Position numbers and translations under genes: made by a program. Positions 23,123 to 38,421 of a stretch of 64,000 nt of DNA are shown here, in pieces. Source of the stretch: Sulfitobacter marinus (lineage in GTDB: Bacteria; Pseudomonadota; Alphaproteobacteria; Rhodobacterales; Rhodobacteraceae). The notes beneath the pieces are model-generated. The model was not told where the DNA came from, did not search any database, and was given only the letters and a program-made list of their open reading frames with translations. The DNA is taken from positions 62,001-126,000 of the forward strand of contig NZ_FPAJ01000003.1 of assembly GCF_900116285.1 (NCBI RefSeq). Reading direction: 5' to 3'. The first letter of the stretch is position 1. Each line of letters begins with the position of its first letter.

Positions 23123-24445
23123 TCAGCCCAAGGCTTGCATGATGCTTTTGCCCAGCTTTTCGACCAGTTCATCAATTTGTGCGTCCGTGATGATAAACGG
23201 TGGTGCCAGCAGCACGTGATCCCCGGTTCTCCCGTCAATCGTGCCAGACATCGGATAGCAAATCAGACCGTTTTCAAATGCGTGTTTCTTGATCTTTGCA
23301 GCAATACCCAAGGTTGGATCAAACGGCGCTTTGGTACTGCGATCAGCCACCATTTCAACGCCCATGAACAAGCCACGGCCCCGAATATCGCCGACGTTAG
23401 GGTGCTGGCCAAAGGCGGCATTTAACGCGCTGCGCAGCTTGTCCCCCTGACGTTGCACATTGGACAACAGATCACGCCCGAGAACGGCGGAAACCACCGC
23501 GACACCGGCGGCCGCGGCCGTCGGGTGGCCCAGATAGGTATGCCCATGCTGGAAAAAGCCTGTGCCGTCTTGGATCGCCTGGTAAATCTGGGCCGTGCAT
23601 AGCATTGCCCCGATGGGCTGGTATCCGCCGCCCAACCCCTTGGCGATACACAAGATATCCGGGTTCACGCCTTCTTGCGTGCAGGCAAATAGCGCGCCTG
23701 TGCGCCCCATGCCGCACATCACCTCGTCCAAGATCAACAACACGCCGTATTGATCGCAAATCTCGCGGATGCGTTTGAAATACCCCGGTGCGGCGGTCAA
23801 CGCGCCAGATGTCGCCCCCACCACAGGCTCGGCAATGAATGCCATCACGGTTTCCGGGCCGACACGCAGCAATTCTTCCTCAAGCAGGTTGGCGGCGCGG
23901 AGGCCGTATTCCTCGGGTGTCTCGCCATCATGCATCAGGCGGTATTCATAGCAGGGATTGATGTGGCTGATATCCAACAGCAGCGGCGCGAATTGCGCGC
24001 GACGCCATTCGTTCCCGCCCGCCGATAACGCGCCAATGGTGTTGCCGTGATAGCTTTGCTTGCGGGCGATGATACGGCCCCGTTCGGGCTCTCCCCGCTC
24101 AACGTAGTATTGGCGGGCAAGTTTCAGCGCGGCCTCGACCGCCTCTGACCCGCCGGACACCAGATAGACGCGATCCAGATCGCCCGGCGCGTGTTCGATC
24201 AACAGATCGGCAAGGGTTTCAGCCGGTTCAGAGGTCAAGAACCCCGTATGCGCATAAGCCAAACTGTCCAACTGCGCCTTGATCGCGTCAATCACTTCGT
24301 GGTCGCCATGGCCAAGGCACGACACCGCCGCCCCACCTGATGCATCCAAATACTGCTTGCCGCTGGCGTCGGTCAGATAGCACCCCTCGCCACTGACGGC
24401 GACCGGGGGCAGGTTGCGGGTGTGACGGGGAAAGACATGCGACAT
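23123..24445 (-). CDS. Class III (omega) aminotransferase
   Basis: 440 residues. PLP site: SGGSEAVEAALKLAR (phosphate cup, about 97-111), SYHGNTIGAL, LILDEVMCGMGRTG with D240, and the Schiff-base lysine K269 in CIAKGLGGGYQP. Class III enzymes move amino groups from the terminal amine of diamines, omega-amino acids or related compounds. Last gene of the five-gene amine operon (21-nt gap after the C45 gene). In that setting a terminal amine created by decarboxylation is its most likely substrate. A second class III enzyme, gabT, lies at 37 kb and is not the same protein. Confidence 0.88.
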   Translation of the reverse strand: MSHVFPRHTRNLPPVAVSGEGCYLTDASGKQYLDASGGAAVSCLGHGDHEVIDAIKAQLDSLAYAHTGFLTSEPAETLADLLIEHAPGDLDRVYLVSGGSEAVEAALKLARQYYVERGEPERGRIIARKQSYHGNTIGALSAGGNEWRRAQFAPLLLDISHINPCYEYRLMHDGETPEEYGLRAANLLEEELLRVGPETVMAFIAEPVVGATSGALTAAPGYFKRIREICDQYGVLLILDEVMCGMGRTGALFACTQEGVNPDILCIAKGLGGGYQPIGAMLCTAQIYQAIQDGTGFFQHGHTYLGHPTAAAAGVAVVSAVLGRDLLSNVQRQGDKLRSALNAAFGQHPNVGDIRGRGLFMGVEMVADRSTKAPFDPTLGIAAKIKKHAFENGLICYPMSGTIDGRTGDHVLLAPPFIITDAQIDELVEKLGKSIMQALG

Positions 24446-24466
24446 CAGGTTATCCTTGGCTAAGGG

Positions 24467-25438
24467 TTAAGCAGCGCCGGGCAGCAACACGTTGCGCGCC
24501 CCTTCCTCAAAGTTGTCAATTGTCTGGGGCCAGACCGTTCCGGGCCAGCGCAGTTCCATCTGACGTTTTCGGGGGCGATATACGGCAGTGTAAAGCGTCC
24601 CGAAACCGGCGTTAAAGGCATGCGAATACAAGGGCGGCTTTAGAAACGTCCCGATAAATTTCTCTTCGGGGTCACGGTGGAAACGCAGGCGTTGCAACAG
24701 ATACCGTTCACGTTCAACCGTGGCGGTGAACCGCGCGTGGCTGATCCATTCAACGGTTTCTTGGTGGTTGGTTGCCACAGCGGCATTGGTAATCAACGTC
24801 TCACGATCGGGGGCCATGAACGCGGTCAAATACTTGCGCTTTCGGTCCAGCACAGTGACGTTATAGCTCATGTGGGTAGGCACGCGCGCCAGTACCTCGC
24901 CCGCCTGTTCCGTGGTTTCGCAGATTTGCAAAACATAGCGCAGGATAAGCGGCACGCCAAACCCCACACCCACGACGCGCCTGCCCCCAAAGGTCAGCGA
25001 GATCGACAGGCCCGCGTCATTCACACCGTCCACCAACCCGAACAACCCGTCCGAGGTGCCCATGACTTTGCGGCCCTGCCAGCCCGTGTGCAAAACCAAG
25101 CTGTCAAAAGCGTTGATGTTGTAGTCGTAATTGCGCACCAAAACAGGTTCTCTGCCGCCCCACACGGCCTGACTACACCCCGACAGATAGGGCGGCGGGC
25201 AATAAAAGCTTAGGAACCGCGCAGCCAAATCGCCGCCGCCGGCCTGCTCGCACAGTTCCTCGTAAAGGGGGACCATCTCGGGCATGTGGGTTTTGAGCGC
25301 GCGCCTGCATTCCGCATAGGTCGGGCGCACGGATTCGCCCTCCTTTAACCACCATTTGCGGTAATGGGGCCAGTATTCGGCGAAAAGCCCGGCCCATTTA
25401 GGACCGGGCGTTTCTTCTGATATCGCACGCCAAAGCAT
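24467..25438 (-). CDS. C45-family Ntn acyltransferase/amidohydrolase
   Basis: 323 residues. Resembles the acyl-CoA:6-aminopenicillanate acyltransferase (AAT, peptidase C45) fold. SGCSQAVWGGREPVLVRNYD places the autoprocessing nucleophile at C88 after a Gly, followed by the R-N-Y/D oxyanion region; LVDGVNDAGLSISLTFGG and TNHQETVEW are the other conserved blocks. The enzyme should self-cleave before C88 to expose an N-terminal cysteine that hydrolyses or transfers acyl groups on amides. No signal peptide, so cytoplasmic. Between the ATP-grasp and aminotransferase genes with 18-21-nt gaps. Substrate unknown; a conjugate made by the ATP-grasp enzyme is an obvious candidate. Confidence 0.8.
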   Translation of the reverse strand: MLWRAISEETPGPKWAGLFAEYWPHYRKWWLKEGESVRPTYAECRRALKTHMPEMVPLYEELCEQAGGGDLAARFLSFYCPPPYLSGCSQAVWGGREPVLVRNYDYNINAFDSLVLHTGWQGRKVMGTSDGLFGLVDGVNDAGLSISLTFGGRRVVGVGFGVPLILRYVLQICETTEQAGEVLARVPTHMSYNVTVLDRKRKYLTAFMAPDRETLITNAAVATNHQETVEWISHARFTATVERERYLLQRLRFHRDPEEKFIGTFLKPPLYSHAFNAGFGTLYTAVYRPRKRQMELRWPGTVWPQTIDNFEEGARNVLLPGAA

Positions 25439-25456
25439 GTGCTGGCCTCTCAGGGC

Positions 25457-26917
25457 TTAGAGAATTTTAAATGCCGGATCTGAAAACGCGGGACCTGCCT
25501 CTGCCACTGGCAAAGGCCGACCGTGCACCGACTGCTTGATGCCGTGAATCCACTTTTTCGCGCGCTCATTCAACTGGAATGATTTGGTCATCGACCGGCC
25601 ACGGGTCACAAGGATGCCAATATCGGCCCCTTCATAGCGGTAATCACCCGGTTGAAGGATGCGCAAAAAGAACGCCTCGTTCTCGGATTCGACCGCACGG
25701 CGGTGATAATCGAAACGGTCAAACACCACGCGACCGTCTTCAAGCATCTTATAGATGCCAGTTTCCGGTGCATCGCTACAGATATCAACGCTGTCTTCGG
25801 TATGTTTGATCACCATTTGCGACCAGCCGTCGATCATCGCGGGGTCGGCCCAACGGTCGTTCAGCTCGCCGGTGTCCAGATTGAATTTCTTTTTCGAGAA
25901 CTCAAGCAAGTGGAACAGGAACAGCGGTGCATCAGCATGGGCAAACGCCGCATGGTTGGTCATGGATGACGCACCAGTGATGCGCGGGTTCAATTCCCCC
26001 AACCACAGATCGCCGGTTTTCTTGTCGATCAGGAAGTCCAGCTCGAAATAACCACGATATCCTTCCTTGCGCAGCTGTTCACCAAACTTGAAAGTCAGTT
26101 CCCGCGCCCGTTGGCGCACCTTGGGCGGGAAGGCGGTGGAAAGAATTTCGTTACCACACCAGCCACCGCGATAGGGTGTCAGATCTTTGAAACCGACCAG
26201 CTCGGTCATTAACGGACCAACGATTGTACCTTCTTTGGTGGCACAAGCCTCAATCGCCGAACCGCGGCAATCGATGCGCTTCATGATCTTGATCTCGCCT
26301 TCGCCGACAATCTCGGACTCGTGGCGACGGAAGTCAGCCTCGGACTTGATAAAGAACGTGGTGTGCCCGCTGTCGCCAAAAGCCGATTGCAGCACCAGAT
26401 CATGGCCGATCCCCGCCTTTTCGCAGGTCTTGCGCAGACCTTCATAGCTTTTGACCTCGGCCAGCACGTTCGGCACCGATGGCACGCCGGCTTTGTTGCC
26501 GATACGGACGGTTTCGATCTTGTTGTCCATCTTGGTGCGAAGTTTGGCCTTAGGGAACCAGACATCGGCGCCTAGCTCTTTGGATAGACGTTCGGTTTCC
26601 TCATCGAACATCAGGAACACAAACTTGGGCTTGCCGCCGCGGCGTTTGATGAAATCAATCACCTCTTTGTGCTGCAACAGATAGTTGTTGATGTCTTCGA
26701 TGCTTTGGAATTCGGCATGCGGTTGTTCGGACGGGCAGAACACATTTGGGTGTTTGCCGCCGTAACAGTCGATGTAGCAGATATATTTGAAATTCTTCAC
26801 CCATTCATCGAGGCCCAACAGGTTAAAGTTGGTGGCCGAAATGAAATAGATCGGGTCTTCGTTGCGGTGAAAGAACCGGCGAATTTCCGAGATATTCTTG
26901 AGAACAGTCGTGGACAT
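25457..26917 (-). CDS. ATP-grasp carboxylate-amine ligase-like protein
   Basis: 486 residues. Residues ~130-340 form an ATP-grasp core: TKMDNKIETVRIGNKAGVPS (subdomain before the lid), LVLQSAFGDSGHTTFF (glycine-rich loop), IKIMKRIDCRGSAIEACATK, and the metal site ELDFLIDKKTGDLWLGELNP where E and N bind Mg-ATP. Databases tend to name such proteins 'biotin carboxylase', but no biotin- or carboxyltransferase-type domain is present. It should activate a carboxylate as acyl phosphate and join it to an amine, thiol or bicarbonate. AAAAGGAACC precedes the ATG. It lies 17 nt after the decarboxylase, which would provide an amine. Partner acid unknown. Confidence 0.8.
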   Translation of the reverse strand: MSTTVLKNISEIRRFFHRNEDPIYFISATNFNLLGLDEWVKNFKYICYIDCYGGKHPNVFCPSEQPHAEFQSIEDINNYLLQHKEVIDFIKRRGGKPKFVFLMFDEETERLSKELGADVWFPKAKLRTKMDNKIETVRIGNKAGVPSVPNVLAEVKSYEGLRKTCEKAGIGHDLVLQSAFGDSGHTTFFIKSEADFRRHESEIVGEGEIKIMKRIDCRGSAIEACATKEGTIVGPLMTELVGFKDLTPYRGGWCGNEILSTAFPPKVRQRARELTFKFGEQLRKEGYRGYFELDFLIDKKTGDLWLGELNPRITGASSMTNHAAFAHADAPLFLFHLLEFSKKKFNLDTGELNDRWADPAMIDGWSQMVIKHTEDSVDICSDAPETGIYKMLEDGRVVFDRFDYHRRAVESENEAFFLRILQPGDYRYEGADIGILVTRGRSMTKSFQLNERAKKWIHGIKQSVHGRPLPVAEAGPAFSDPAFKIL

Positions 26918-26934
26918 AGGATTGGTTCCTTTTC

Positions 26935-29673
26935 TTATTCAGGTGAAGACGAGAGGTTTTTTTTGCGCACACGTTTCAGCGCGGCATCGGTAAAGACACG
27001 CAGCCCAAGATCGGGGCGGTAGCCGTGGATTTCGCTGACATCCAGGGCGCGCATAAAGGACAGGATTTCCTGGCTGACGACCTGCCCCGGCACAAGGATC
27101 GGAAAGCCGGGCGGATAGGGGATGATAAAGCTGGCCGATACCACCGTTTCACCCGCATCCATCGCCTCGCGTAGGGTGCCGTTAAGGTCCAGATAATCGG
27201 TGTTCTTTTCATCATAAGCGAGGAAGAACGCGGTGCGAATATCCCCTTCCGCCGTTACGTCATCGGCGCGGAAGGCATCGTGAAAACGGCTGAAGTCCGG
27301 CAGCGGCGGATAGTTTTCCATCAGGTTCGACACGCGATTATCAAACGACCGGCGTTCCATCTTGCTGGCGTCGTCCAGCAGATCATCCAGCGATTTGGCT
27401 ATCTCGACCAACACCTCGATCAGATAGGCAACGCTGGACCGGGTCGTGCCGATATTGGTCATGAACAACACGGTGTTGCGCGATGTTTTATTGATCTGGA
27501 TGCCGTATTTATCCATCAGGATATCAGTCTTGAACGTGTCACCGTCCCAGCCCGTACCGCCCACCAACAGGGTCACGCGGCTGGCGTCGAGAACGAACTG
27601 GTCTTTCTCCCAGCAGTCCCACATATCTGTCCAGCCCTGTTCCTGATCATAATAGCTGGTGACGCCGCTTTCACGATATTCCTCGGGGATCATGTCGCCT
27701 GCGGTCAGCACCTTAAAGTATTTCGACAACAGTGGATGGTCGGCAATGGCACGGCGCATCGACAGGGCTGCCTCGATCTGGCGTTGGACGAACTCGAACC
27801 CTTCAAGTTCCACCTGCCGTCGCCCCACATCCAATGACGCAATGATCTGATAGTTCGGCGAGGTGGATGTGTGGGTCATGTAAGCTTCGTGGAAGGACTG
27901 TTCCACCTCGCCCTTAAAGTCCTGGTCGTTGACGTGCAGCATCGACCCCTGACGCAAAGACGTCAGCGTTTTATGGGTCGATTGCGTGGTATAGACCCTG
28001 ACCCGCGATGTGGGCGGCGGGATCAGACGTGTGTTCAGCAGCGTTTCGTCATCCGCATCTTTCAGCGTGGCTTGCTGCGCCTCGTAGGCTTCGGCATGTT
28101 TGGCCGTTTTTAGTTTGTCGCGCAGGGTATTGGCCGCGTTCATGCCGGTGCGCTGGCGATATGTCGGGTTGAAGCGGGCAAAGGCAAACCATGCTTCGTC
28201 CCACAGGAAAACCAGATCCGGTTTGATCGCCAGACATTCCTCCATGACGCGTTCGACGTTATAAACCAGCCCGTCAAAGGTACAGTTGGTCAGCAACAAC
28301 ATCCGCACCTGATCCAGCTTGCCCGCCGCCTTGAGCGTCAGCAACTGATGCTTGATTTCGCGCAGGGGCACCGCACCGTACATGGAATATTCGTTCAACG
28401 GATAGCTATCCAGATAGCAGACCTGCGCGCCCGCCAGCACCATGCCGTAGTGGTGTGATTTGTGGCAATCGCGGTCGACCAGCACAATGTCACCGGGACG
28501 CACCAGTGCCTGAACAACGATCTTGTTGCAGGTTGATGTGCCATTGGTGGCAAAGAACGTTTGCTTGGACCCGAATGCCCGCGACGCCAGTTCTTGTGCT
28601 TCTTTGATCGGGCCGTGGGGCTCCAGCAAACTGTCCAGACCACCCGACGTGGCAGAGGTTTCCGCAAGGAAGATGTTCGGTCCGTAGAACGCGCCCATAT
28701 CCTGAATCCAGTGCGACCGCGTGATTGATTTACCGCGGCTGATCGGCATTGCGTGGAAAACGCCGGTCGGCTGTTTGGAATATTCGACAAGCGCCGTGAA
28801 AAACGGTGATTTATTGCGGGCCTGAACACCGCGCAGAATGTTCAGGTGCAACTCCATAAAGTCTTCTTGGTTATAGAAAACCCGACGGCAAATGCCCAAA
28901 TCCATACCCGCGATGTCTTCGACCGACCGTTCGGTAACCAAATAAGCATCCAACTCCGGCCGCACCTTGGCGATCATCCGGCACAGCTCGGGGCCATAAT
29001 TTTCAGGTTGGAGTTTTTCGATCTCTTCCTGACCGCCCGCGCGCGCCAGATAGCGGTCCAAGATCTGCTTATCCATGTTGGATTTCAACGTCAGGCCAGG
29101 GCGTACAACGATGGCTTGGATATTGTGGTTGAACAGCACCGCAATCAGCGCGTCTTCGATGGATTTCACAACCACCGCCTCGTAGTGAAACGGGTCTTCG
29201 GGGCGGCGCATGCGGCTGACATTTGATTTCAGCCAGCGTTCCTGCTGTTCGCTCACATCGTCAACAATCAACACCTCGAAATAGGGCTTTGTCAGCGCCC
29301 GCGCTTCGGGGGATAGCATTGCCTCGTCGTCATGTTCTTCGTTGTCGATGCTATCACGCTCAAGGGGGATGGACCGGCGGCGATAGGCCCCGGTGGTCAA
29401 GCCACGGGCAATGCGGTTCACAGCAAATGCGAGATCTTCAAAGTTGTTGTGGTTCAGCATCCGTTGCAAATGTTCGAACGCGGGCATGCCGGGGAACGCC
29501 CAATAGGGTTCGATCAGCGCAAGCGAATCTAGCAGCTCTTGGCAGGTGGCCCGCAGTTTTTCGACCTCTGCGGCGGTCGCCTTGCGGGTCAGAGACGCCG
29601 CCGCCGCGCGAAACGCGCTCCACCTGTCGGACCGCAACTGAATGGCCGAAGAATAGCTGTTCATAGAATGCAT
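26935..29673 (-). CDS. PLP-dependent Orn/Lys/Arg decarboxylase, elongated
   Basis: 912 residues from ATG 29673 (GGAG 8 nt upstream). Fold-type I decarboxylase: LAETSATSGGLDSLL (about 337-351), FFATNGTSTCNKIVVQALVR, VDRDCHKSHHYGMVLAG, LVFLWDEAWFAFARF with D493, and Schiff-base lysine K569 in QSTHKTLTSLRQGSML. Biodegradative Lys/Arg/Orn decarboxylases are ~710-750 residues. This one has about 150 extra N-terminal residues before a receiver-like wing domain (from ~133, YFEVLIVDDVSEQQERW) and an insertion of ~40 residues (506-555) between DEAW and the PLP lysine. It produces a diamine or agmatine; which amino acid is used cannot be settled by eye. Confidence 0.88.
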   Translation of the reverse strand: MHSMNSYSSAIQLRSDRWSAFRAAAASLTRKATAAEVEKLRATCQELLDSLALIEPYWAFPGMPAFEHLQRMLNHNNFEDLAFAVNRIARGLTTGAYRRRSIPLERDSIDNEEHDDEAMLSPEARALTKPYFEVLIVDDVSEQQERWLKSNVSRMRRPEDPFHYEAVVVKSIEDALIAVLFNHNIQAIVVRPGLTLKSNMDKQILDRYLARAGGQEEIEKLQPENYGPELCRMIAKVRPELDAYLVTERSVEDIAGMDLGICRRVFYNQEDFMELHLNILRGVQARNKSPFFTALVEYSKQPTGVFHAMPISRGKSITRSHWIQDMGAFYGPNIFLAETSATSGGLDSLLEPHGPIKEAQELASRAFGSKQTFFATNGTSTCNKIVVQALVRPGDIVLVDRDCHKSHHYGMVLAGAQVCYLDSYPLNEYSMYGAVPLREIKHQLLTLKAAGKLDQVRMLLLTNCTFDGLVYNVERVMEECLAIKPDLVFLWDEAWFAFARFNPTYRQRTGMNAANTLRDKLKTAKHAEAYEAQQATLKDADDETLLNTRLIPPPTSRVRVYTTQSTHKTLTSLRQGSMLHVNDQDFKGEVEQSFHEAYMTHTSTSPNYQIIASLDVGRRQVELEGFEFVQRQIEAALSMRRAIADHPLLSKYFKVLTAGDMIPEEYRESGVTSYYDQEQGWTDMWDCWEKDQFVLDASRVTLLVGGTGWDGDTFKTDILMDKYGIQINKTSRNTVLFMTNIGTTRSSVAYLIEVLVEIAKSLDDLLDDASKMERRSFDNRVSNLMENYPPLPDFSRFHDAFRADDVTAEGDIRTAFFLAYDEKNTDYLDLNGTLREAMDAGETVVSASFIIPYPPGFPILVPGQVVSQEILSFMRALDVSEIHGYRPDLGLRVFTDAALKRVRKKNLSSSPE

Positions 29674-29751
29674 CAATCGTACTCCGGTTAGGGCGTCCGT
29701 TTCTGCATTCCAGAGCCCGGCCCAACTTGGGCCGAGACAGAACGCAAAAGC

Positions 29752-30840
29752 TTAGCCGCTGTGTGTTGGCCCGCTTCCGCCGGATGCGCCGGTTTTCACA
29801 GGTGAAACAGGTGGTGATGCTGCGGCAGGAGCCGCAGGTGGATGTCCCTCAGCTGTTGCTGTTCCAGCAGTCGGGTTTGGTAATGGTTCATGGACAAAGC
29901 TTGGTGTTGCCTCTTGCCCCTTAAAAATTGGCGCGTCCGGCACACGTTGGGCAGGCACATCAACATGCAGACCCGCGCGCGAGCCTTGCTGCGGCACCTC
30001 AAGCGGGCCAAGAGTGTTCAAATAGGCGTCTGTCCCACTATTGCGGTCATAGACCGAGAAATCGGTCGACCGGTCGCGGAAAGATTTCAGAACCTGACCC
30101 AAACCCTTCATGCCGGTTTCGCGCTGACGGCGTACCATCGACAGGTCAACTTCGATCGGGAACATGTCCTCTTGGCCGGCCGATTGGTGCAGCACCATTG
30201 ATGTCGGATCAACAACCAGTGATTTACCCACACCGCCTGCGCCAAGGCCGTTTACAGCAAAGACATAGCATTGGAACTGCGCCGCCGTTGCGCGCGCGAT
30301 AGCAAGCTCGGCGTCGCGGTCTGTTGTGCCGGTCAACACGGGGTTCAGCAGGATTTCAACGCCCTGACTGGTCAGTTGCCGCGTGGTTTCGGGGAACCAG
30401 ATATCATAGCAGATCGACAGGCCAAAACGGCCCACTTCCGGCACGTCAAAAACACAGAACTCAGTGCCTGCCGCGATGCCGGATTCGTAAGGCCGGAACG
30501 GGAACATCTTGGCATAACGGCGAATGATCTCGCCCTCGGGGTTGATCACCACGGCCGTGTTGTAAACGCGGCCATCCTCGGGGTTTTTCAGAAACATCGA
30601 TCCGGGGATCAGCCAGACGCGATGCTTCCGCGCGGCGGCTTGAAACTTCTCTAGTGTTTCGTTTTCCGGCGGCAGGGCAAAGCGGTCCAATGGGCCAAAG
30701 GGGGCCAGTTCGGAAAACAGAACCATCTGTGTCCAAGGGAAACGCGCCATCAGAATATCCAGCCGGTGGATCATGCCATCGACATTGGATTCCAGGGCGT
30801 TGACGTACATTTGCACGCCCGCAATCGCGAAAGGTGTCAT
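29752..30840 (-). CDS. Nitrilase-superfamily C-N hydrolase with Pro/Ala-rich tail
   Basis: 362 residues. The catalytic triad is complete: E44 (LFSELAPFGP), K111 (RRYAKMFPF), C144 (GLSICYDIWFPE). It cleaves an amide or carbamoyl bond, like N-carbamoylputrescine amidase or aliphatic amidases. The core ends near residue 270; the last ~65 residues are a low-complexity Pro/Ala/Gly-rich tail (e.g. PPAAPAAASPPVSPVKTG) not usual in the family. First gene of the operon; the 75-nt gap to the decarboxylase is the largest within it. Its ribosome site GGAG sits at the foot of a long leader hairpin. Confidence 0.85.
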   Translation of the reverse strand: MTPFAIAGVQMYVNALESNVDGMIHRLDILMARFPWTQMVLFSELAPFGPLDRFALPPENETLEKFQAAARKHRVWLIPGSMFLKNPEDGRVYNTAVVINPEGEIIRRYAKMFPFRPYESGIAAGTEFCVFDVPEVGRFGLSICYDIWFPETTRQLTSQGVEILLNPVLTGTTDRDAELAIARATAAQFQCYVFAVNGLGAGGVGKSLVVDPTSMVLHQSAGQEDMFPIEVDLSMVRRQRETGMKGLGQVLKSFRDRSTDFSVYDRNSGTDAYLNTLGPLEVPQQGSRAGLHVDVPAQRVPDAPIFKGQEATPSFVHEPLPNPTAGTATAEGHPPAAPAAASPPVSPVKTGASGGSGPTHSG

Positions 30841-31009: not shown

Positions 31010-33778
31010 TTACCCCGTGACAGTCTGACGAGCAGCGCGCGAACTGCGGCCTCTTTGCAGCACCACGACCAGCGCAAGCAGCAAAAGCGCGGGGATAAAC
31101 ATCCAGTATTTGCTGGGCACGGACACCGGCTTGAGAACGCGCAGCACCTCTTGATCCCAGTCCAGACCGGCAGCAGCCGCAGAAGAATCGTACAGCACAT
31201 CATCGATGATCATCTTGTCGCCATCCATGCGCGTCACGATACCCGCTGCTTCCAACTTTTCCTCACCTGTGGTGCCTTCGCCCATCGGCAGCAGCGCCAC
31301 GAATTCAATCGGATCACCCAGATCACCAACGCCAGATACCCGCAGGCGCAAGTTCTCGCCAATTGGTGTATCGGCTGCGGCTTGCACGATTTCGGCTGGT
31401 GCTTCCTCAAGATACGGTGGAAACACCATATCCATCCAGAAACCGGGCCGGAACAGCGTGAACGCGATCAGCAGCAAGGCAATGGTTTCGTAGAAACGGT
31501 TTCTGGCCAAGAACCACCCTTGGGTTGCGGCCGCGAAAAGCAGCATCGCAAAGGTCGCGACAATGAAGACGAATATGCCCTGAACCATCGTCACGTTGAT
31601 CAGCAACAATTCGGTGTTGAAGATAAACAGGAACGGCAAGGCAGCGGTGCGTAAGCTGTAAAAGAACGCAACCACACCGGTTTTGATCGGATCACCACCA
31701 GATACAGCAGCAGCTGCAAAGCTGGCCAAACCCACCGGCGGTGTCACATCGGCCATGATGCCAAAGTAGAACACGAACAGGTGCACAGCGATCAGCGGCA
31801 CGATCAACCCGTTTTGCTGGCCCAAGGTCACGATGACAGGGGCAAGCAGCGCGGACACAACGATATAGTTCGCCGTGGTCGGTAGACCCATGCCAAGGAT
31901 CAGCGACAGGATCGCCGTCAGGAACAGAATGGCAAGGATATTACCGCCCGACAGAACCTCGACCACATCGGCCAAAGCTGAACCAACACCGGTTTGGCTG
32001 ACAACGCCCACGATGATACCCGCAGTCGCCGTGGCAATGCCGATACCGATCATGTTGCGCGCACCGACGACTAAGCCGTCGATCAGGTCTTTGACACCTT
32101 CAACCACGTCATTGGCGAATTGGCTTTCGCCGCGGAAAATCGCCATCAGCGGACGCTGGGTGACCAGGATGAACACCATATAGGTGGTCGCCCAGAACGC
32201 CGACAGGCCAGGGGACAGACGATCAACCATAAGAGCCCAAACCAGCACAACGATTGGCAGGATAAAGTGCAAGCCAGACCGCACCGTTGGACCGGGCATG
32301 GGCAGACGTGTGACAGGCTCGTTCGGATCGTCCAGCTTCAGCGGCTCTTCCTTGGAGCCGATATACAGCAGCGCCGCATACACAGCCGTCAGCACACCAA
32401 AGATGATATAACCCGCACTGTTCGGGAACGCAGGGCGCAACCAGCCCATGCCATAGTAAACCGCAAAGCTCAGCGCGCAGATCGCCGCGACGATAAAGGC
32501 AGTGACCAGCAGACGCTGCACAATCGGCTTGGGCGTATAGGGGCGTTCAAGCCCGACCATGCCGGCCTTTAGCGCCTCAAGATGCACGATATACACCAAG
32601 GCGATGTAGGAAATCACCGCGGGCAGGAACGCATGTGTCACCACGTCGAAATAGGGGATACCCACATATTCGACCATCAAGAACGCCGCAGCGCCCATAA
32701 CGGGCGGCATGATCTGGCCGTTCACGGACGAGGCAACCTCGACCGCGCCCGCCTTTTCAGAGCTGAACCCGACCTTTTTCATCAACGGGATGGTGAATGT
32801 ACCCGTGGTCACAACATTCGCGATGGAAGAACCCGAGATCAGGCCCGTCATCGCAGAGGACACAACAGCCGCCTTCGCCGGCCCGCCCTTCATGTGGCCC
32901 ATCATGCTGAATGCCACTTGGATAAAGTAGTTGCCCGCACCGGCCTTATCCAGCAGCGCGCCGAACAGAACGAACAGGAAAACAAATGACGTCGAAACAC
33001 CAAGCGCGATGCCGAACACACCTTCGGTGGTGATCCACTGGTGGTTCACGATCTCGGACAGGCTGTTGCCCTTGTGCGCGATGATGTCAGGCATCACCGG
33101 ACCAAGCACGTTGTAGACCAAGAACACCGAGGCCACGATCATCAAAGCCGGGCCAAGCGCGCGGCGCGTTGCCTCAAGCAGGATCATGATGCCGATCACG
33201 AAGACCACGGTGTCTTGCATGTTGGGCGCGCCAACACGGCTTGAAATCTCGCGGTAGTAGACAAACAGATACAGCGCCGCTGCGGCACCGACGATGGCCA
33301 AGATCCATTCCCAAACCGGCACGCGGTCTTTGGGGGAACCCAGCAGAACAGTGGCGACAACACCCAGGGCAACAAGCGGAATCCACCATGTCGGCGTGCC
33401 GTCTTTCGCCGCCACCATAAACAGATAGGCCAGTACAATCGGGACAATCAGGCCAAGGCCCAGTTGCACTTTGGTACGTGCCGCAGGGAATGCGGTGATG
33501 CCAAGGAACAATGCAAAAGCAAGGTGGATAGAGCGGGTTTCGGTATCGTTAAACACACCCCAACCCACAATAAACGGAATGGGTGACGCGATCCACAGCT
33601 GGAACAGCGACCATGCAAGCGCGATCATCGCAAGGAAAAAGCCAACGCCCCCGGTCGCAGAACGTCCGCCAGTGTCCGAAGACGCGACCAGTTCGTCCAG
33701 TTCCGCCTGACTTAACCCCGCACGCCCTGCGGCTTCGGCTTCGACGGCAGCAGCTTGCTGTTGATCATTGTTTGACAT
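31010..33778 (-). CDS. TRAP transporter fused permease, TAXI type (DctQM)
   Basis: 922 residues from ATG 33778 (MSNNDQQQAAAVEAEAAGRA); eight upstream codons in frame are not convincing. Around 17-20 hydrophobic segments. The N-terminal ~230 residues correspond to the small DctQ-like part; the large DctM-like part has the duplicated scissor-helix pattern with VVSSAMTGLISGSSIANVVT and LILGMGLPTTANYIVVSALL, the two family hairpins. The C-terminal ~150 residues form a soluble insert flanked by helices, as in 4TM-12TM TAXI fusions. Sodium-coupled secondary uptake with the receptor at 33895. Substrate unknown; adjacency to the amine operon on the same strand is suggestive only. Confidence 0.93.
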   Translation of the reverse strand: MSNNDQQQAAAVEAEAAGRAGLSQAELDELVASSDTGGRSATGGVGFFLAMIALAWSLFQLWIASPIPFIVGWGVFNDTETRSIHLAFALFLGITAFPAARTKVQLGLGLIVPIVLAYLFMVAAKDGTPTWWIPLVALGVVATVLLGSPKDRVPVWEWILAIVGAAAALYLFVYYREISSRVGAPNMQDTVVFVIGIMILLEATRRALGPALMIVASVFLVYNVLGPVMPDIIAHKGNSLSEIVNHQWITTEGVFGIALGVSTSFVFLFVLFGALLDKAGAGNYFIQVAFSMMGHMKGGPAKAAVVSSAMTGLISGSSIANVVTTGTFTIPLMKKVGFSSEKAGAVEVASSVNGQIMPPVMGAAAFLMVEYVGIPYFDVVTHAFLPAVISYIALVYIVHLEALKAGMVGLERPYTPKPIVQRLLVTAFIVAAICALSFAVYYGMGWLRPAFPNSAGYIIFGVLTAVYAALLYIGSKEEPLKLDDPNEPVTRLPMPGPTVRSGLHFILPIVVLVWALMVDRLSPGLSAFWATTYMVFILVTQRPLMAIFRGESQFANDVVEGVKDLIDGLVVGARNMIGIGIATATAGIIVGVVSQTGVGSALADVVEVLSGGNILAILFLTAILSLILGMGLPTTANYIVVSALLAPVIVTLGQQNGLIVPLIAVHLFVFYFGIMADVTPPVGLASFAAAAVSGGDPIKTGVVAFFYSLRTAALPFLFIFNTELLLINVTMVQGIFVFIVATFAMLLFAAATQGWFLARNRFYETIALLLIAFTLFRPGFWMDMVFPPYLEEAPAEIVQAAADTPIGENLRLRVSGVGDLGDPIEFVALLPMGEGTTGEEKLEAAGIVTRMDGDKMIIDDVLYDSSAAAAGLDWDQEVLRVLKPVSVPSKYWMFIPALLLLALVVVLQRGRSSRAARQTVTG

Positions 33779-33850
33779 GTTTAGTCCCCCTGGTGGCCCC
33801 ATCTTAGGACGAGTGCCGCTTTTTTGGTATCTGGTGGGCCTTTGGGCCCA

Positions 33851-33894: not shown

Positions 33895-34854
33895 TCATTC
33901 GATCCAACCGCGCTCTTTGTAGTACTTCGCCGCACCATCATGCAGAGGTGCAGACAAACCGCCAGAGATCATCTCTTCTTCTTTGAGGTTCGCAAAGGCC
34001 GGGTGCAGCTTTTTGAAACGGTCAAAGTTGTCGAACACAGCTCTTACGACTTCGTAGACCACGGCATCGTCAACATCCGAAGATGTCACGAATGTCGCCT
34101 TCACACCGAATGTTTTCACATCGCTGTCTGTGCCTTTGTACATGCCACCGGGAATGGTCGCATAAGCATAGAACGGGTTGTCCGCGACCAGTTTGTCGAT
34201 GGCTTCGCCTTCAACCGGAACCAGCTTGGCGTCCACTGTGGAAACCGCTTCTTGGATCGACCCGTTCGGGTGGCCCACGGTATAGATGATCGCATCAACC
34301 TTGTTGTCGCCCAATGCGGCGGCTTGTTCGGCTGGCTTCAGCTCGGACGCGAGCGAGAAATCATCCATTGACCAGCCTTTGGCGTCCAGAACGACTTCCA
34401 TAGTGGCCAGCTGACCGGAACCGGGGTTGCCCACGTTCACGCGCTTGCCCTTAAGATCATCAAAGCTGTCGATGCCCGCGTCGGCCCGTGCAATCACGGT
34501 GAACGGTTCGGAGTGTACAGAGAATACCGCACGCTCTTTGTCGAACTTCTCGCCCTCAAACTTTGAGGAGCCGTTATAGGCGTGGAACTGCCAGTCGGAC
34601 TGGGCAACGCCCATATCCATATCACCCGCCTTGATGGCGTTGATGTTGGCGATGGAACCACCTGTCGAAGGTGCCGTACATTTTAGGCCGGTTTTGGCGC
34701 TGTCACGGTTGACCAAACGGCAGATCGATTGACCCACAACAAAGTAAACGCCGGTTTGGCCACCGGTGCCGATGGTGATGAATTTTTCCTGTGCTGTCGC
34801 TGCTGTGCCCGCGACAAGCGCAGAAGCAATAGCGATGGACTTGAAAATTGTCAT
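33895..34854 (-). CDS. TAXI-family TRAP solute receptor
   Basis: 319 residues with a signal peptide (MTIFKSIAIASALVAGTAAT, cleaved about residue 21). The family signature ITIGTGGQTGVYFVVGQSIC starts near residue 26, followed by STGGSIANINAIKAGDMDMG, the ligand-cleft loop. Periplasmic binding protein delivering an anionic organic solute, probably a carboxylate such as glutamate or 2-oxoglutarate, to the fused permease. First gene of the transporter pair. Promoter not identified in the long upstream gap. Confidence 0.93.
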   Translation of the reverse strand: MTIFKSIAIASALVAGTAATAQEKFITIGTGGQTGVYFVVGQSICRLVNRDSAKTGLKCTAPSTGGSIANINAIKAGDMDMGVAQSDWQFHAYNGSSKFEGEKFDKERAVFSVHSEPFTVIARADAGIDSFDDLKGKRVNVGNPGSGQLATMEVVLDAKGWSMDDFSLASELKPAEQAAALGDNKVDAIIYTVGHPNGSIQEAVSTVDAKLVPVEGEAIDKLVADNPFYAYATIPGGMYKGTDSDVKTFGVKATFVTSSDVDDAVVYEVVRAVFDNFDRFKKLHPAFANLKEEEMISGGLSAPLHDGAAKYYKERGWIE

Positions 34855-35299
34855 TTTGATAGTCTCCCAACTTTTCCCAGACCCCCCGTCATTCAGCGCG
34901 GGGTTTCATAGATACCTGAAATGAGCGCAGATATTTTCGAGTAAAACAAGCCAATTTATTGCAGTCTAGAGGTTGAATACACGCCATAAACACCGGTTTC
35001 AGCGTCCGCGACCCTGACCGCACCCCTGCATCCTATTGGTGTATCCGCGTTGGATTTAATGCTCGCCAGTCACTTGTGCTAGTGTGGAACCAATACAACC
35101 ATTTGTTTTAAAATGATTTTGACTGAAAAATCGGTGACGATAGTTACAAACACAAATGCAGTGTTGAGAAAATCAAACGACTTCATTTTTATTCGCATCG
35201 GATAAATTGTGGCACCCTCGTGAAAACCCAAGTATTTATGCTATAGGCTATGTCAGCCTCGAAAAACTGCCTAAAATGGGCGCACCCGCAGGAGAATGC
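34855..35299. other. 445-nt intergenic region without a gene
   Basis: Lies between the divergent TAXI receptor and the glutamate-synthase-like gene. Distinctly AT-richer than its flanks, stops in all frames, no convincing small ORF. It must hold both promoters. GGAAC occurs at 35086-35090 but has no -10 partner. AGGAGA at 35290-35295 is the ribosome site of the plus-strand gene. Confidence 0.6.
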
Positions 35300-36916
35300 A
35301 TGAAAAGAATCCCGTCCCTCGCCCGTTTTGGAACGTTTGCGGGGGTGCTGTTTTTGGCCCTGCTTTCCCTCGTCTTTCTGGTGACTTGGTCGATCTGGTT
35401 CATCATACCGCTCGCGCTTTTCGGGGTGCTGTCACTGATGGGCATCTATGATGTTTTTCAGGAAAAGCACTCGATCCTGCGCAACTATCCCGTAATGGGC
35501 CATATGCGGTTCTTTTTCGAAGGAATACGCCCGGAAATCCGTCAGTATCTAATCGAATCCGATCAGGACGAAGAACCCTTTAGCCGTGATGACCGGTCTT
35601 TGGTCTATCAGCGCGCCAAAGGCCAAGAGGACGCACGGCCCTTTGGCACGCGGATGCGGGTTTACGATGCCGGTTATTCATGGGTCACCCATTCTGTGCA
35701 ACCCGTTCACATCACCGACAGCGATTTTCGCGTGCGCATCGGCAATGACGCGTGCAAGCAACCCTACGACGCGTCGATCTACAATATTTCCGCGATGAGC
35801 TTTGGCTCCCTTTCCGCCAATGCCATCAGTGCGTTGAACAAAGGGGCCAAGATGGGCGGCTTTGCCCATGACACCGGCGAAGGTGGCGTCAGCCGCTATC
35901 ATAGGGACGGCGGGGGAGATCTCATCTACGAGGTCGGGTCGGGCTATTTTGGGTGCCGCACAGAGGATGGTCAGTTTGATCCGCAAAAATTTCAGGACCA
36001 AGCCAGCAGTAACCAGATTAAGATGATCGAACTGAAGCTGAGCCAAGGCGCCAAGCCTGGACACGGCGGCATGCTGCCCGCCTCAAAGATCAGCGCCGAA
36101 ATTGCCGAAGCGCGCGATATTCCCATGGGTCAGGATTGCGTGTCACCGGCCGCGCATTCGGCCTTTAACACCCCTATCGAGATGATGGAGTTCTTGGGTC
36201 AACTGCGCGAGCTATCAGGCGGCAAGCCCGTAGGGTTCAAGCTGTGCATCGGGCACCAACGTGAATTCATGTGTATGGTCAAGGCGATGCTGGAAACCGG
36301 GGTCGTACCAGACTTTATCGTCGTCGACGGCACCGAAGGCGGCACAGGTGCCGCGCCGCTTGAGTTTGCCAACCATATCGGCATGCCGATGATCGAAGGC
36401 CTTACCTTTGTGCACAACACCCTGCGGGGCGCAGGCATACGTGATCAGGTCAAGTTGGGTGCCGCCGGCAAAGTCGTATCCGCCTTTGACATTGCGCGAT
36501 GTCTGGCACTGGGCGCGGACTGGTGCAATTCGGCGCGCGGGTTCATGTTTGCGGTTGGCTGTATTCAGGCGCAGGCATGCCACACCAATCACTGCCCCGT
36601 CGGCGTCGCGACCCAAGATCCAACCCGGCAACGTGCGCTGGATGTCGGCCACAAAAGCCAACGCGTCGCACGATTTCACCGCAATACACTGAAAGCCCTT
36701 GCTGAAATGACCGGCGCTGCCGGGCTTGATAATCCCAGTGAATTCCTGCCCCGCCATTTGATGCTACGTCAGGGCGATAACAGCATGGTGCAGGGGGACG
36801 AGGTCTATGGCTACCTGCCCGAAGGGTATCTGCTGGATGACAAGGCACCGGATTTCAGGGGCAACAAAACACGTTGGGACCGCGCACAGGCCTCTAGTTT
36901 CGCGCCCTTCGATTGA
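35300..36916 (+). CDS. Membrane-anchored glutamate synthase-like FMN protein
   Basis: 538 residues from ATG 35300 (GGAGA 5 nt upstream); the frame opens at 35207 but has no good start there. N-terminus carries two hydrophobic segments (GVLFLALLSLVFLVTWSIW, FIIPLALFGVLSLMGIYDV), absent in GltB. The rest matches the FMN/synthase domain of the large glutamate synthase subunit: ISAMSFGSLSANAISALNKG, GEGGVSRYHRDGGGDLIYEV, KPGHGGMLPASKI, DGTEGGTGAAPLEFANHIG, and a cysteine cluster in GCIQAQACHTNHCPVGVATQ that would bind a 3Fe-4S centre. There is no glutaminase domain. Redox partner and substrate are unknown. Precedes the bidirectional terminator shared with gabT. Confidence 0.85.
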   Translation: MKRIPSLARFGTFAGVLFLALLSLVFLVTWSIWFIIPLALFGVLSLMGIYDVFQEKHSILRNYPVMGHMRFFFEGIRPEIRQYLIESDQDEEPFSRDDRSLVYQRAKGQEDARPFGTRMRVYDAGYSWVTHSVQPVHITDSDFRVRIGNDACKQPYDASIYNISAMSFGSLSANAISALNKGAKMGGFAHDTGEGGVSRYHRDGGGDLIYEVGSGYFGCRTEDGQFDPQKFQDQASSNQIKMIELKLSQGAKPGHGGMLPASKISAEIAEARDIPMGQDCVSPAAHSAFNTPIEMMEFLGQLRELSGGKPVGFKLCIGHQREFMCMVKAMLETGVVPDFIVVDGTEGGTGAAPLEFANHIGMPMIEGLTFVHNTLRGAGIRDQVKLGAAGKVVSAFDIARCLALGADWCNSARGFMFAVGCIQAQACHTNHCPVGVATQDPTRQRALDVGHKSQRVARFHRNTLKALAEMTGAAGLDNPSEFLPRHLMLRQGDNSMVQGDEVYGYLPEGYLLDDKAPDFRGNKTRWDRAQASSFAPFD

Positions 36917-37035: not shown

Positions 37036-38421
37036 TTATTCAGCCATCGCCGCCTGAACAGCCGCTTCGAAAATGTTCAGGCCTTCTTCTACGATTTCGT
37101 CCGATGCGGTCAGCGGCACCATCACGCGGATCGCGTTGCCATGCATCCCGCAGCTTAGCAGCAGCAAGCCGCGCTTAAGGGCATGAGCGATAACACGTTT
37201 GGTGAAATCACCATCCGGTGTCGCTGTGTCAAAATCTGTTACGAATTCAACCGCGATCATCGCGCCCAAACCGCGAATGTCCCACATCCGGAAGGGTGCC
37301 GAACGTGCGCCGATCTCGGCAAAGCGTGCCTTGATATGTTCACCCATGGAGGTGGAACGCGCCAGCAGGCCTTCTTCCTCGATGGCGGCGATGGCGGCCA
37401 AGGACGCAGCGCAAGCAACAGGGTTACCGCCATACGTGCCACCCAAACCGCCCGGTGCCATGGCATCCATCACGTCCGCGCGACCAATCACACCAGCCAA
37501 CGGATATCCGCCCGCCATGGATTTCGCGACCGTGATCAGGTCTGGCACAACGCCGGAATGTTCAATCGCAAACCATGTTCCTGTGCGACCAAAACCGGCC
37601 TGCACTTCATCCGCGATTAGCAAAATACCGTGTTCGTCGCAGATGTCGCGCAGCTGCTGCATCATGTCGAAGGGAACGGGCGTATAACCACCTTCGCCCA
37701 GAACCGGTTCGATGATGATCGCAGCGACGCGTTCGGGCTGCGCATCTGTCAGGAACAGGTTCTTCAGGCCGGTAATTGCGTCCTGAACGGTGATGCCATC
37801 ACGCTGCGACGGGAAAGGCGCGCGGAAGATGTCGGATGGGAAGGGGCCCACGTCTTTTTTGTAGGGGGACACCTTGCCGGTCATGCCCAGCGTCAGCAAT
37901 GTGCGGCCGTGGTACCCGCCGGTAAAGGCGATCACACCCGGACGACCGGTTGCGGCGCGCGCGATTTTAACCGCGTTTTCAACAGCTTCTGCACCTGTAG
38001 TGACCAACAGCGTCTTTTTAGGGTGATCTCCGGGGGCCAGCGCGTTCAGCTTCTCGGCCAGCTCGATATAGGGGCCATAAGGCACAACCTGAAAGCTGGT
38101 GTGCGTATAGTGGTCTTCCTGCGCTTTCGCGGCCGCAACCACTTTCGCGTGGCGATGGCCCGTGTTCAGCACACCAATGCCGCCCACAAAATCAATGTAG
38201 CGATTGCCATCAACATCCCACAGCTCGGCGTTTTCCGCGTATTTGGCATAGATCGGTGCCGCAGATGCAACACCACGCGGCACCGCCTGCTCGCGGCGGG
38301 CGATCAGCTGTGCATTGGTGTCGATCGATACCTTCGTTTCCAGCATATCTGGAACCACCGTGCTTTTGGTCGATTTCTTTGCCGCGGCTTTGCGAGGCTT
38401 CTTTTTGACTGTGCTGGACAT
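37036..38421 (-). CDS. gabT: 4-aminobutyrate aminotransferase (GABA transaminase)
   Basis: 461 residues. Class III PLP enzyme: TTGAEAVENAVKIARAATGR (phosphate cup), YHGRTLLTLGMTGKVSPYK, IIEPVLGEGGY, LIADEVQAGFGRTGTW with D271, and Schiff-base lysine K300 in VAKSMAGGYPLAG; these match GabT closely. Converts GABA and 2-oxoglutarate to succinate semialdehyde and glutamate. The first ~25 residues are a basic tail (MSSTVKKKPRKAAAKKSTKS) not found in enteric GabT, and the start is firm because AAGGAA lies 7 nt before the ATG. Divergent from the PuuR-like regulator, which probably controls it. Confidence 0.92.
   Translation of the reverse strand: MSSTVKKKPRKAAAKKSTKSTVVPDMLETKVSIDTNAQLIARREQAVPRGVASAAPIYAKYAENAELWDVDGNRYIDFVGGIGVLNTGHRHAKVVAAAKAQEDHYTHTSFQVVPYGPYIELAEKLNALAPGDHPKKTLLVTTGAEAVENAVKIARAATGRPGVIAFTGGYHGRTLLTLGMTGKVSPYKKDVGPFPSDIFRAPFPSQRDGITVQDAITGLKNLFLTDAQPERVAAIIIEPVLGEGGYTPVPFDMMQQLRDICDEHGILLIADEVQAGFGRTGTWFAIEHSGVVPDLITVAKSMAGGYPLAGVIGRADVMDAMAPGGLGGTYGGNPVACAASLAAIAAIEEEGLLARSTSMGEHIKARFAEIGARSAPFRMWDIRGLGAMIAVEFVTDFDTATPDGDFTKRVIAHALKRGLLLLSCGMHGNAIRVMVPLTASDEIVEEGLNIFEAAVQAAMAE

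What the first reader, a model, noticed from the sequence alone, without database searches (positions are those of the whole stretch)
23123..30840. Five-gene operon for an unrecognised amine ligation/release pathway
Seen: nitrilase-fold amidase, PLP Orn/Lys/Arg decarboxylase, ATP-grasp ligase, C45 Ntn acyltransferase/hydrolase and class III aminotransferase in one tight minus-strand operon (gaps of 17-78 nt), all with intact catalytic residues. Known: gamma-glutamylation of putrescine (Puu route) uses ligate-oxidise-hydrolyse logic with different enzyme families. Inference: the decarboxylase makes an amine, the ATP-grasp enzyme joins it to an acid, the aminotransferase acts on the free end, and the two amidases trim or release the product. 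It could equally assemble a small amide metabolite. I know no described pathway with this exact set.
Basis: partly seen in the sequence, partly recalled or inferred. Interest (0 to 1): 0.7.

Follow-up and report, generated by a model that had tools for sequence, protein, structure and literature searches.

The report
Unassigned ligase–decarboxylase–amidase gene cassette
Many marine bacteria carry the same small set of enzyme genes of unknown purpose; the genes around it suggest that it may turn an acidic amino acid such as glutamate into GABA by a detour through an amide, which would be a new route if experiments bear it out.

Summary
The five genes are present as described, in one tight minus-strand run (gaps 17-75 nt). 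They are not one conserved five-gene unit. The conserved core is ATP-grasp ligase + C45 hydrolase + PLP decarboxylase, usually with the nitrilase: all four in 80 of 94 loci with flanks. The aminotransferase is an accessory (same strand within 3 kb in 16 of 94).

The decarboxylase belongs to the uncharacterised Rv2531c family. The Glu postulated to bind the substrate in lysine decarboxylase is Asn in 30 of 30 rows.

Linked genes point to an acidic amino acid coming in (glutamate-type TAXI receptor, one GltP-like symporter, AspT antiporters beside decarboxylase paralogs) and GABA going out (GABA transaminase, one SSADH, PuuR-like regulator). Against this, an agmatinase-like gene is nearby in 6 of 94 loci, so arginine is not excluded.

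Best reading, confidence 0.3: glutamate to GABA by ligate-decarboxylate-hydrolyse. Every reaction is inferred. Six searches of the open-access library listed no paper describing such a pathway.

The parts
29752..30840 (-). NIT: nitrilase-fold amidase (362 aa; E44, K111, C144)
   Evidence: PF00795 112.8 bits; within the module in 83 of 94 loci; catalytic residues invariant in 88 aligned rows
26935..29676 (-). DC: OKR-fold PLP decarboxylase of the Rv2531c family (913 aa; K569, N729, Q865)
   Evidence: best solved relative 9n0n/9n0o, 831.6 bits; 88 of 94 loci; N729 and Q865 in 30 of 30 rows
25457..26917 (-). GRASP: ATP-grasp ligase, model NF005096 'biotin carboxylase' (486 aa; E308, N310, R312)
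   Evidence: NF005096 748.5 bits over 684; no Pfam family at 1e-3; model pLDDT 86.7; the anchor of the locus searches
24467..25438 (-). C45: autoproteolytic Ntn hydrolase/acyltransferase (323 aa; C88)
   Evidence: NF040521 180.9 over 85; model pLDDT 91.8, best fold matches isopenicillin N acyltransferase 2x1c/2x1d; 93 of 94 loci
23123..24445 (-). AT: class III aminotransferase (440 aa; K269), accessory
   Evidence: NF005685 760.5 over 485; homologue anywhere in 21 of 94 loci, same strand within 3 kb in 16 of 94
31010..33802 (-). fused TRAP permease with DUF3394 (TAXI type)
   Evidence: TIGR02123 648.4 over 320.65, PF11874; 44 of 106 loci
33895..34854 (-). TAXI solute receptor with glutamate-type binding residues
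   Evidence: TIGR02122 351.1 over 84.35; 8s4j 411.9 bits; Y45, S75, Q93, H123, E125 equivalents in 44 of 44 rows; 43 of 106 loci
35207..36916 (+). FMN-binding glutamate-synthase-like protein
   Evidence: PRK11750 119.9 bits, far under its cut-off of 1047; 21 of 106 loci
37036..38421 (-). GABA transaminase
   Evidence: TIGR00700 550.6 over 506.65; 30 of 106 loci
38599..39150 (+). PuuR-like HTH-cupin regulator
   Evidence: NF007408 157.4, under its cut-off of 211; 27 of 106 loci

Best explanation
A self-contained enzyme module that brings an acidic amino acid, most likely L-glutamate, to GABA through an amide-protected intermediate. Proposed steps: (1) the ATP-grasp enzyme joins the omega-carboxylate of glutamate to an amine; (2) the PLP decarboxylase removes the alpha-carboxylate, leaving a GABA amide; (3) the C45 hydrolase cleaves that amide to GABA and frees the amine, and the nitrilase clears a second (perhaps primary) amide; (4) GABA goes to GABA transaminase and succinate semialdehyde dehydrogenase. 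In the window the substrate would enter through the TAXI-TRAP transporter. Shown: enzyme families, gene linkage, co-occurrence, residue changes. Inferred: the substrate, the order of the steps, and every reaction; the amine partner is unknown.
For: Composition: the genes that stay together are the ligase (94 of 94 by choice of loci), C45 (93), decarboxylase (88) and nitrilase (83), without a constant oxidase or aminotransferase. Input: the TAXI receptor is close to glutamate receptor structures, and the two residues that matter most for glutamate binding in VcGluP, Y45 and Q93 (passages of PMC11574862), are kept in 44 of 44 linked receptors; in Cupriavidus oxalaticus the run continues into a symporter with the Asp that GltP has and DctA lacks and a Glu/Asp-type binding protein; decarboxylase paralogs without the ligase lie beside AspT-family antiporters in 8 of 10 opened regions and form one clade; glutamate dehydrogenase genes are divergent from the module in 2 rhizobial plasmids. 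Output: GABA transaminase in 30 of 106 loci, a module-GabT-SSADH run in L127, a puuE-like gene just upstream of the nitrilase in L198. Only 1 of 23 genus genomes has a strong glutamate decarboxylase GadB. C45 has the fold of isopenicillin N acyltransferase, which by general knowledge removes an aminoadipyl group held by its omega-amide.
Against: The one strong GadB in the genus is in the window's own genome (56%), so this strain would not need a second route. An agmatinase-like gene is nearby in 6 of 94 loci, in-line with the module in L040 and L200 and just after C45 in L108. In Shinella the ligase and C45 sit in an arginine/ornithine catabolic operon without the decarboxylase. In L049/L050 the module is inside an ectoine degradation cluster. 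TAXI is absent from 63 of 106 loci, and the window's receptor differs from VcGluP at S40, Y46, D157 and M201. NCBIfam's best label for the Cupriavidus symporter is DctA, under cut-off. AdiA also lacks the Glu, so arginine stays possible. If the AspT-linked paralogs act on free acidic amino acids, the ligase-linked enzyme may too, and the amide step is then unexplained. Most loci (80 of 115) are close relatives of the window.
Confidence: 0.3

Rival explanations
1. Puu-like route fed from arginine (closest to the first reader). The decarboxylase makes agmatine, an agmatinase gives putrescine, the ATP-grasp enzyme glutamylates it, an aminotransferase or oxidase and an aldehyde dehydrogenase act on the free end, and C45/nitrilase release glutamate and GABA.
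For: PuuR-like regulator in 27 and GABA transaminase in 30 of 106 loci; agmatinase-like gene in 6 of 94 loci, puuB-like in 4, puuA-like in 3, ALDH label in 3, three of the agmatinase-like proteins over the TIGR01230 cut-off (L200, L061, L108); SpeB-like genes exist in all 23 genus genomes searched, so they could act in trans; Asn729 does not exclude arginine (AdiA has Thr); decarboxylase near arginase and ornithine cyclodeaminase in L150.
Against: No oxidising step is constant: an aminotransferase or PuuB/DoeD/DadA homologue in 30 of 94 loci; a separate Puu-like cluster exists in the same genome; decarboxylase paralogs are paired with AspT-type, not AdiC-type, antiporters; acidic amino acid uptake genes are hard to explain for a recycled co-substrate.
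Confidence: 0.2
2. Conjugate maker and breaker. The decarboxylase makes GABA (or beta-alanine) from the free acidic amino acid, the ATP-grasp enzyme joins it to an amine or amino acid in the manner of carnosine synthase, and C45 with the nitrilase break the conjugate down again. The conjugate would be a store, osmolyte or signal.
For: Explains why ligase, hydrolase and decarboxylase stay together without an oxidising enzyme; paralogs with AspT suggest a free acidic amino acid as substrate; in several loci the module stands among unrelated genes (for example L041, L047, L113, L138).
Against: Links to importers, GABA transaminase and SSADH look catabolic; no exporter is constantly linked; no known conjugate. 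The carnosine synthase and beta-alanyl-dopamine hydrolase parallels are recalled, not tested.
Confidence: 0.2
3. Arginine to GABA through a primary amide. The decarboxylase acts on arginine, perhaps oxidatively, to give 4-guanidinobutanamide; the nitrilase hydrolyses it, a ureohydrolase gives GABA. Ligase and C45 would do something else.
For: Nitrilase next to the decarboxylase in most loci, ureohydrolase in 6 of 94, GABA transaminase; PLP enzymes that form carboxamides and the arginine oxygenase route are recalled.
Against: Leaves the two most constant genes, ligase and C45, without a role; nitrilase is missing in 11 of 94 loci.
Confidence: 0.07

Closest known systems
Puu pathway of E. coli (PuuA, PuuB, PuuC, PuuD, PuuE, PuuR)
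   Same: ATP-dependent amide formation and later amide hydrolysis on the way to GABA (recalled); GABA transaminase and a PuuR-like regulator are linked in part of the loci
   Different: ATP-grasp instead of the glutamine-synthetase fold, C45/nitrilase instead of a class I amidotransferase, a decarboxylase in the core, no constant oxidase or aldehyde dehydrogenase
Rv2531c family of OKR-fold PLP decarboxylases (PDB 9n0n, 9n0o, 9n0p)
   Same: full-length homology, 831.6 bits over residues 15-904; Asn and Gln at the two changed positions in the printed alignment
   Different: activity of Rv2531c unknown (review PMC12910592, passages); I did not look at its neighbourhood
AspT-linked decarboxylase/antiporter pairs (Ensifer, Rhizobium, Rhodobacter, Phyllobacterium)
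   Same: decarboxylase about 46-50% identical to the window's, same Asn/Gln signature
   Different: no ligase in the opened stretches; one clade of 8 rows apart from the ligase-linked rows
isopenicillin N acyltransferase / C45 hydrolases
   Same: fold (2x1c, 2x1d first) and conserved Cys88
   Different: 12-15% identity in the best fold matches; substrate unknown
biotin carboxylase (the label of NF005096)
   Same: ATP-grasp fold
   Different: Foldseek TM 0.48-0.62 among the 50 listed matches; the motif ELNPRITGAS lacks the Gln and Glu of biotin carboxylase's NxRxQVEH (motif recalled)

Membership tests
Lysine/ornithine decarboxylase (OKR fold) | PLP lysine and OKR core | tested here: met
   K569, H568, D493 invariant; PF01276 253.9 bits over 27
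Lysine/ornithine decarboxylase (OKR fold) | Glu (LdcI Glu526) postulated to bind the substrate | tested here: not met
   Asn in 30 of 30 family rows; Glu in E. coli CadA, LdcC, SpeF, SpeC; Thr in AdiA. Role of Glu526: docking and earlier proposal in PMC5607190 (passages)
Arginine decarboxylase (AdiA type) | activity on arginine | tested here: inconclusive
   only linkage and residues: agmatinase-like gene in 6 of 94 loci; AdiA keeps the second Glu that is Gln here
Rv2531c family | full-length homology and shared signature | tested here: met
Biotin carboxylase | catalytic motif with Gln294/Glu296 (E. coli numbering, recalled) | tested here: not met
   E308-L-N-P-R-I-T-G-A-S in the window; compared with a recalled motif, not with an aligned biotin carboxylase
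C45 autoproteolytic hydrolase/acyltransferase | family model, Ntn fold and nucleophile Cys | tested here: met
   NF040521 over cut-off, fold, C88 invariant in 99 rows
C45 autoproteolytic hydrolase/acyltransferase | autoproteolysis before the Cys | not testable with these tools
   needs purified protein
Puu pathway | glutamine-synthetase-fold ligase and class I amidotransferase hydrolase in the unit | tested here: not met
   ligase is ATP-grasp, hydrolases are C45 and CN_hydrolase
Puu pathway | amine oxidase and aldehyde dehydrogenase in the unit | tested here: not met
   puuB label in 4, puuC label in 2, ALDH label in 3 of 94 loci
Glutamate-type TAXI receptor | Tyr45 and Gln93 of VcGluP | tested here: met
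   44 of 44 rows; residue roles from PMC11574862 passages; residue mapping by me, offset 28 on the alignment

The most novel reading that the evidence does not exclude
A ligate-decarboxylate-hydrolyse route from glutamate to GABA: the ATP-grasp enzyme masks the gamma-carboxylate as an amide, an OKR-fold decarboxylase that has lost the diamine-binding Glu acts on the amide, and C45 unmasks GABA. This would give the wider Rv2531c family a first candidate substrate class, acidic amino acids or their omega-amides.
Probability: 0.25. Interest if true: 0.75.

Novelty: new variant of a known kind. Interest (0 to 1): 0.55.

Why it matters
The module is near-universal in its genus: the ligase passes the family cut-off in 35 of 36 genus genomes, and the 36th has a partial match at a contig end. 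It has at least 571 relatives in a species-level genome collection (capped list). Yet its ligase is labelled biotin carboxylase, which it probably is not, and its decarboxylase belongs to a family with a structure but no known activity. An assay on four purified proteins would settle a substrate for all of them and give a testable lead for the whole decarboxylase family. If the best reading holds, it is a second chemical logic for making GABA.

Tried and rejected
Rejected: chance grouping; biotin carboxylation by the ligase (motif; fold comparison only says ATP-grasp); lysine or ornithine as substrate; the aminotransferase as a core member. Led nowhere: C45 and nitrilase relatives away from the module have no constant partner; ligase fold search gave biotin carboxylase, PurK and PurD alike; literature searches for the set listed nothing on it, within an open-access library only; the TRAP/TAXI system is not mentioned in the Ruegeria transporter paper as searched (PMC10130141, term counts). 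The scan of genome contigs returned its best 80 of at least 571 loci, so distant contexts are under-sampled. Structure of the decarboxylase was not predicted, and its pocket was judged from sequence alone.

Full report
What is there. The window lies in a genome close to Sulfitobacter: the ligase is 99% identical to that of Sulfitobacter sp. CW3. Family assignments hold. Upstream on the same strand are a fused TAXI-type TRAP permease and a TAXI receptor, with gaps of 169 and 92 nt; beyond them are an FMN-binding glutamate-synthase-like gene, a GABA transaminase and a PuuR-like regulator.

What is conserved. Homologues were found as follows: ligase 106, C45 102, decarboxylase 101, nitrilase 93, TRAP permease 44, TAXI 43, GABA transaminase 30, PuuR 27, aminotransferase 24, glutamate-synthase-like 21 (some aminotransferase hits are only 32-44% identical). 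With 9 further loci, and keeping the 94 of 115 with at least 3 kb on both sides, all four core genes lie together in 80; C45 in 93, decarboxylase in 88, nitrilase in 83; an aminotransferase homologue anywhere in 21 and on the same strand within 3 kb in 16. Gene order varies (nitrilase-decarboxylase-ligase-C45, or nitrilase-ligase-C45-decarboxylase in L050 and L052), which speaks for selection for linkage rather than recent common descent alone.

Spread. In the genus the ligase passes its cut-off in 35 of 36 genomes, own included; in the same call it does so in 0 of 24 genomes of other families of the class. Wider samples: 8 of 385 (class) and 8 of 398 (phylum) over the cut-off, 11 in each at E 1e-50; orders around four distant finds gave 5 of 155, 3 of 128, 2 of 48 and 7 of 43 at E 1e-80. 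So it is patchy outside Rhodobacterales. In the phylum sample the decarboxylase is in 17 of 398 genomes, among them all 11 with the ligase (p = 1.4e-17, uncorrected for kinship).

The decarboxylase. Its best solved relatives are 9n0n/9n0o, 831.6 bits over nearly the whole length; the next, a decarboxylase of 751 residues, has 215.4 bits. A 2026 review lists 9N0O under Rv2531c, a probable amino acid decarboxylase whose activity was not clarified (PMC12910592, passages; the primary paper is not held). In an alignment with the five E. coli enzymes, the Glu at LdcI position 526 is kept in CadA, LdcC, SpeC and SpeF, is Thr in AdiA, and is Asn in 30 of 30 rows of this family; a second Glu, in the PGE motif of all five E. 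coli enzymes, is Gln in 30 of 30 (Asn729 also invariant in 96 rows). Glu526 has been postulated to bind the substrate of lysine decarboxylase (PMC5607190, passages). So lysine and ornithine are unlikely; arginine is not excluded by this.

Paralogs without the ligase. Of 10 opened regions that hold this decarboxylase but no ligase, 8 have AspT-family antiporter genes next to it or one gene away (4 annotated plasmid regions; 4 genome regions found by BLAST), some with aspartate 4-decarboxylase or an HdeA/HdeB-family chaperone gene; 2 do not. The 8 form one clade (100/100), and the 30 family rows split from the E. coli enzymes (100/100), with a long-branch warning for the E. coli rows. By general knowledge AspT exchanges aspartate for alanine, so an acidic amino acid is the natural guess for these paralogs.

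Ligase and hydrolases. The ligase model (pLDDT 86.7) matches biotin carboxylase, PurK and PurD at TM about 0.5-0.6. Its motif ELNPRITGAS keeps Glu, Asn and Arg but not the Gln and Glu of biotin carboxylase (motif recalled). I read it as a carboxylate-amine ligase; this is inference. The C45 model (pLDDT 91.8) is closest to isopenicillin N acyltransferase (2x1c/2x1d). The nitrilase is not close to any named equivalog: best 70 bits against a cut-off of 406.

Clues to the input. The TAXI receptor is closest to 8s4j, 9ibo and 9oz4. Using the binding residues given for VcGluP (PMC11574862, passages; entry 8S4J is counted once in that paper, its passage was not shown), Val44, Tyr45, Ser75, Gln93, His123, Glu125, Gly156 and Gly203 are kept in 44 of 44 linked receptors and Tyr200 in 38; Ser40 is Gly in 44, Asp157 is Gln in 43, Met201 is Thr in 40, Tyr46 is Phe in 38. 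Other TAXI systems bind 2-oxoglutarate or phthalate (PMC12344293, passages), so glutamate is likely but not sure. In Cupriavidus oxalaticus (L153) a MocR-family regulator (PdxR model over cut-off) is divergent from nitrilase-decarboxylase-ligase-C45, followed by a symporter and a binding protein. NCBIfam labels the symporter DctA (363.5 bits) before GltP (324), both under cut-off; its best solved relative is an aspartate transporter, and it has the Asp of GltP (LDM) where DctA has Ser (MSE). The binding protein's best NCBIfam model is the glutamate/aspartate one, under cut-off. In rhizobia glutamate dehydrogenase genes are divergent from the module in L060 and L063; in L065 one lies about 5 kb away. 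Peptide-type ABC transporters follow or precede the module in Roseobacter ponti (L062), L127 and rhizobia, so a small peptide is also conceivable.

Clues to the output. In Primorskyibacter (L127) the run is peptide ABC transporter, M20 peptidase, nitrilase, decarboxylase, ligase, C45, GABA transaminase (over cut-off), SSADH (over cut-off). In L198 a puuE-like gene precedes the nitrilase. GABA transaminase is in 30 and PuuR in 27 of 106 loci. GadB-like proteins: the window's own genome (56%) and one weak partial match among 23 genus genomes.

Clues to arginine. In Shinella (L061), and in a nearly identical region in a plasmid named Roseateles (L064), ligase and C45 sit in an operon with an agmatinase-like protein, a 5-guanidino-2-oxopentanoate decarboxylase (over cut-off), an aldehyde dehydrogenase, a D-amino acid dehydrogenase and a racemase-arginase fusion, without the decarboxylase; the nitrilase is divergent with an Lrp regulator. 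An agmatinase-like gene is also in L040, L042, L108 and L200. The genus has SpeB-like genes throughout, 23 of 23 searched, so their presence in trans does not discriminate. In L049 and L050 the module lies between doeA-doeB-asnC and doeC-doeD.

Weighing. The constant genes are exactly ligase, C45 and decarboxylase. That fits a scheme in which decarboxylation is the step done on the amide (best reading) or just before amide formation (conjugate rival). It fits less well a Puu-like scheme, which needs an oxidising step between ligation and hydrolysis. Transport links favour an acidic amino acid; GABA genes favour GABA as the product; agmatinase and the Shinella operon favour arginine. I give the best reading 0.3, the arginine/Puu-like rival 0.2, the conjugate rival 0.2, the primary-amide arginine route 0.07; the rest is unknown. 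No reaction has been shown.

Novelty. Six literature searches of an open-access library listed no paper on this set; subscription journals are mostly absent there. The logic of ligate-modify-hydrolyse is known; decarboxylation as the modifying step, with these families, is what would be new.

Noticed in passing
L146-L149, L179-L182: Paralogs of the decarboxylase beside AspT-family antiporters, in part with aspartate 4-decarboxylase or an HdeA/HdeB-family chaperone gene: candidate acid-resistance decarboxylase/antiporter pairs of unassigned substrate.
   Followed up: partly
L061:15782-17566: A 595-aa protein labelled alanine racemase is an Ala_racemase_N domain (closest model ornithine racemase, under cut-off) joined to an arginase-family domain.
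   Followed up: no
L064 and L150 (NZ_CP084753.1): A plasmid recorded as Roseateles sp. XES5 has the same gene order as a Shinella plasmid around the ligase; the organism name may be wrong.
   Followed up: no
L058, L059: Second, divergent copies (ligase about 45% identical) in two genus genomes: ligase-C45-nitrilase without decarboxylase, beside a DctPQM TRAP transporter.
   Followed up: partly
L049, L050: The module is inserted between the two halves of an ectoine degradation cluster.
   Followed up: partly
window 29752-29940: The nitrilase has a Pro/Ala/Gly-rich C-terminal tail (about residues 300-362); alignments to many relatives stop near residue 290-300.
   Followed up: no
L060:9141-13682: On a Rhizobium leguminosarum plasmid the decarboxylase is in two reading frames and C45 is a remnant beside transposase genes, apparently a decaying copy; not joined.
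   Followed up: no
L183 (own genome, C1 about 127-133 kb): A separate cluster with puuB (43%), two puuA (37%, 34%) and a class I amidotransferase homologue.
   Followed up: partly
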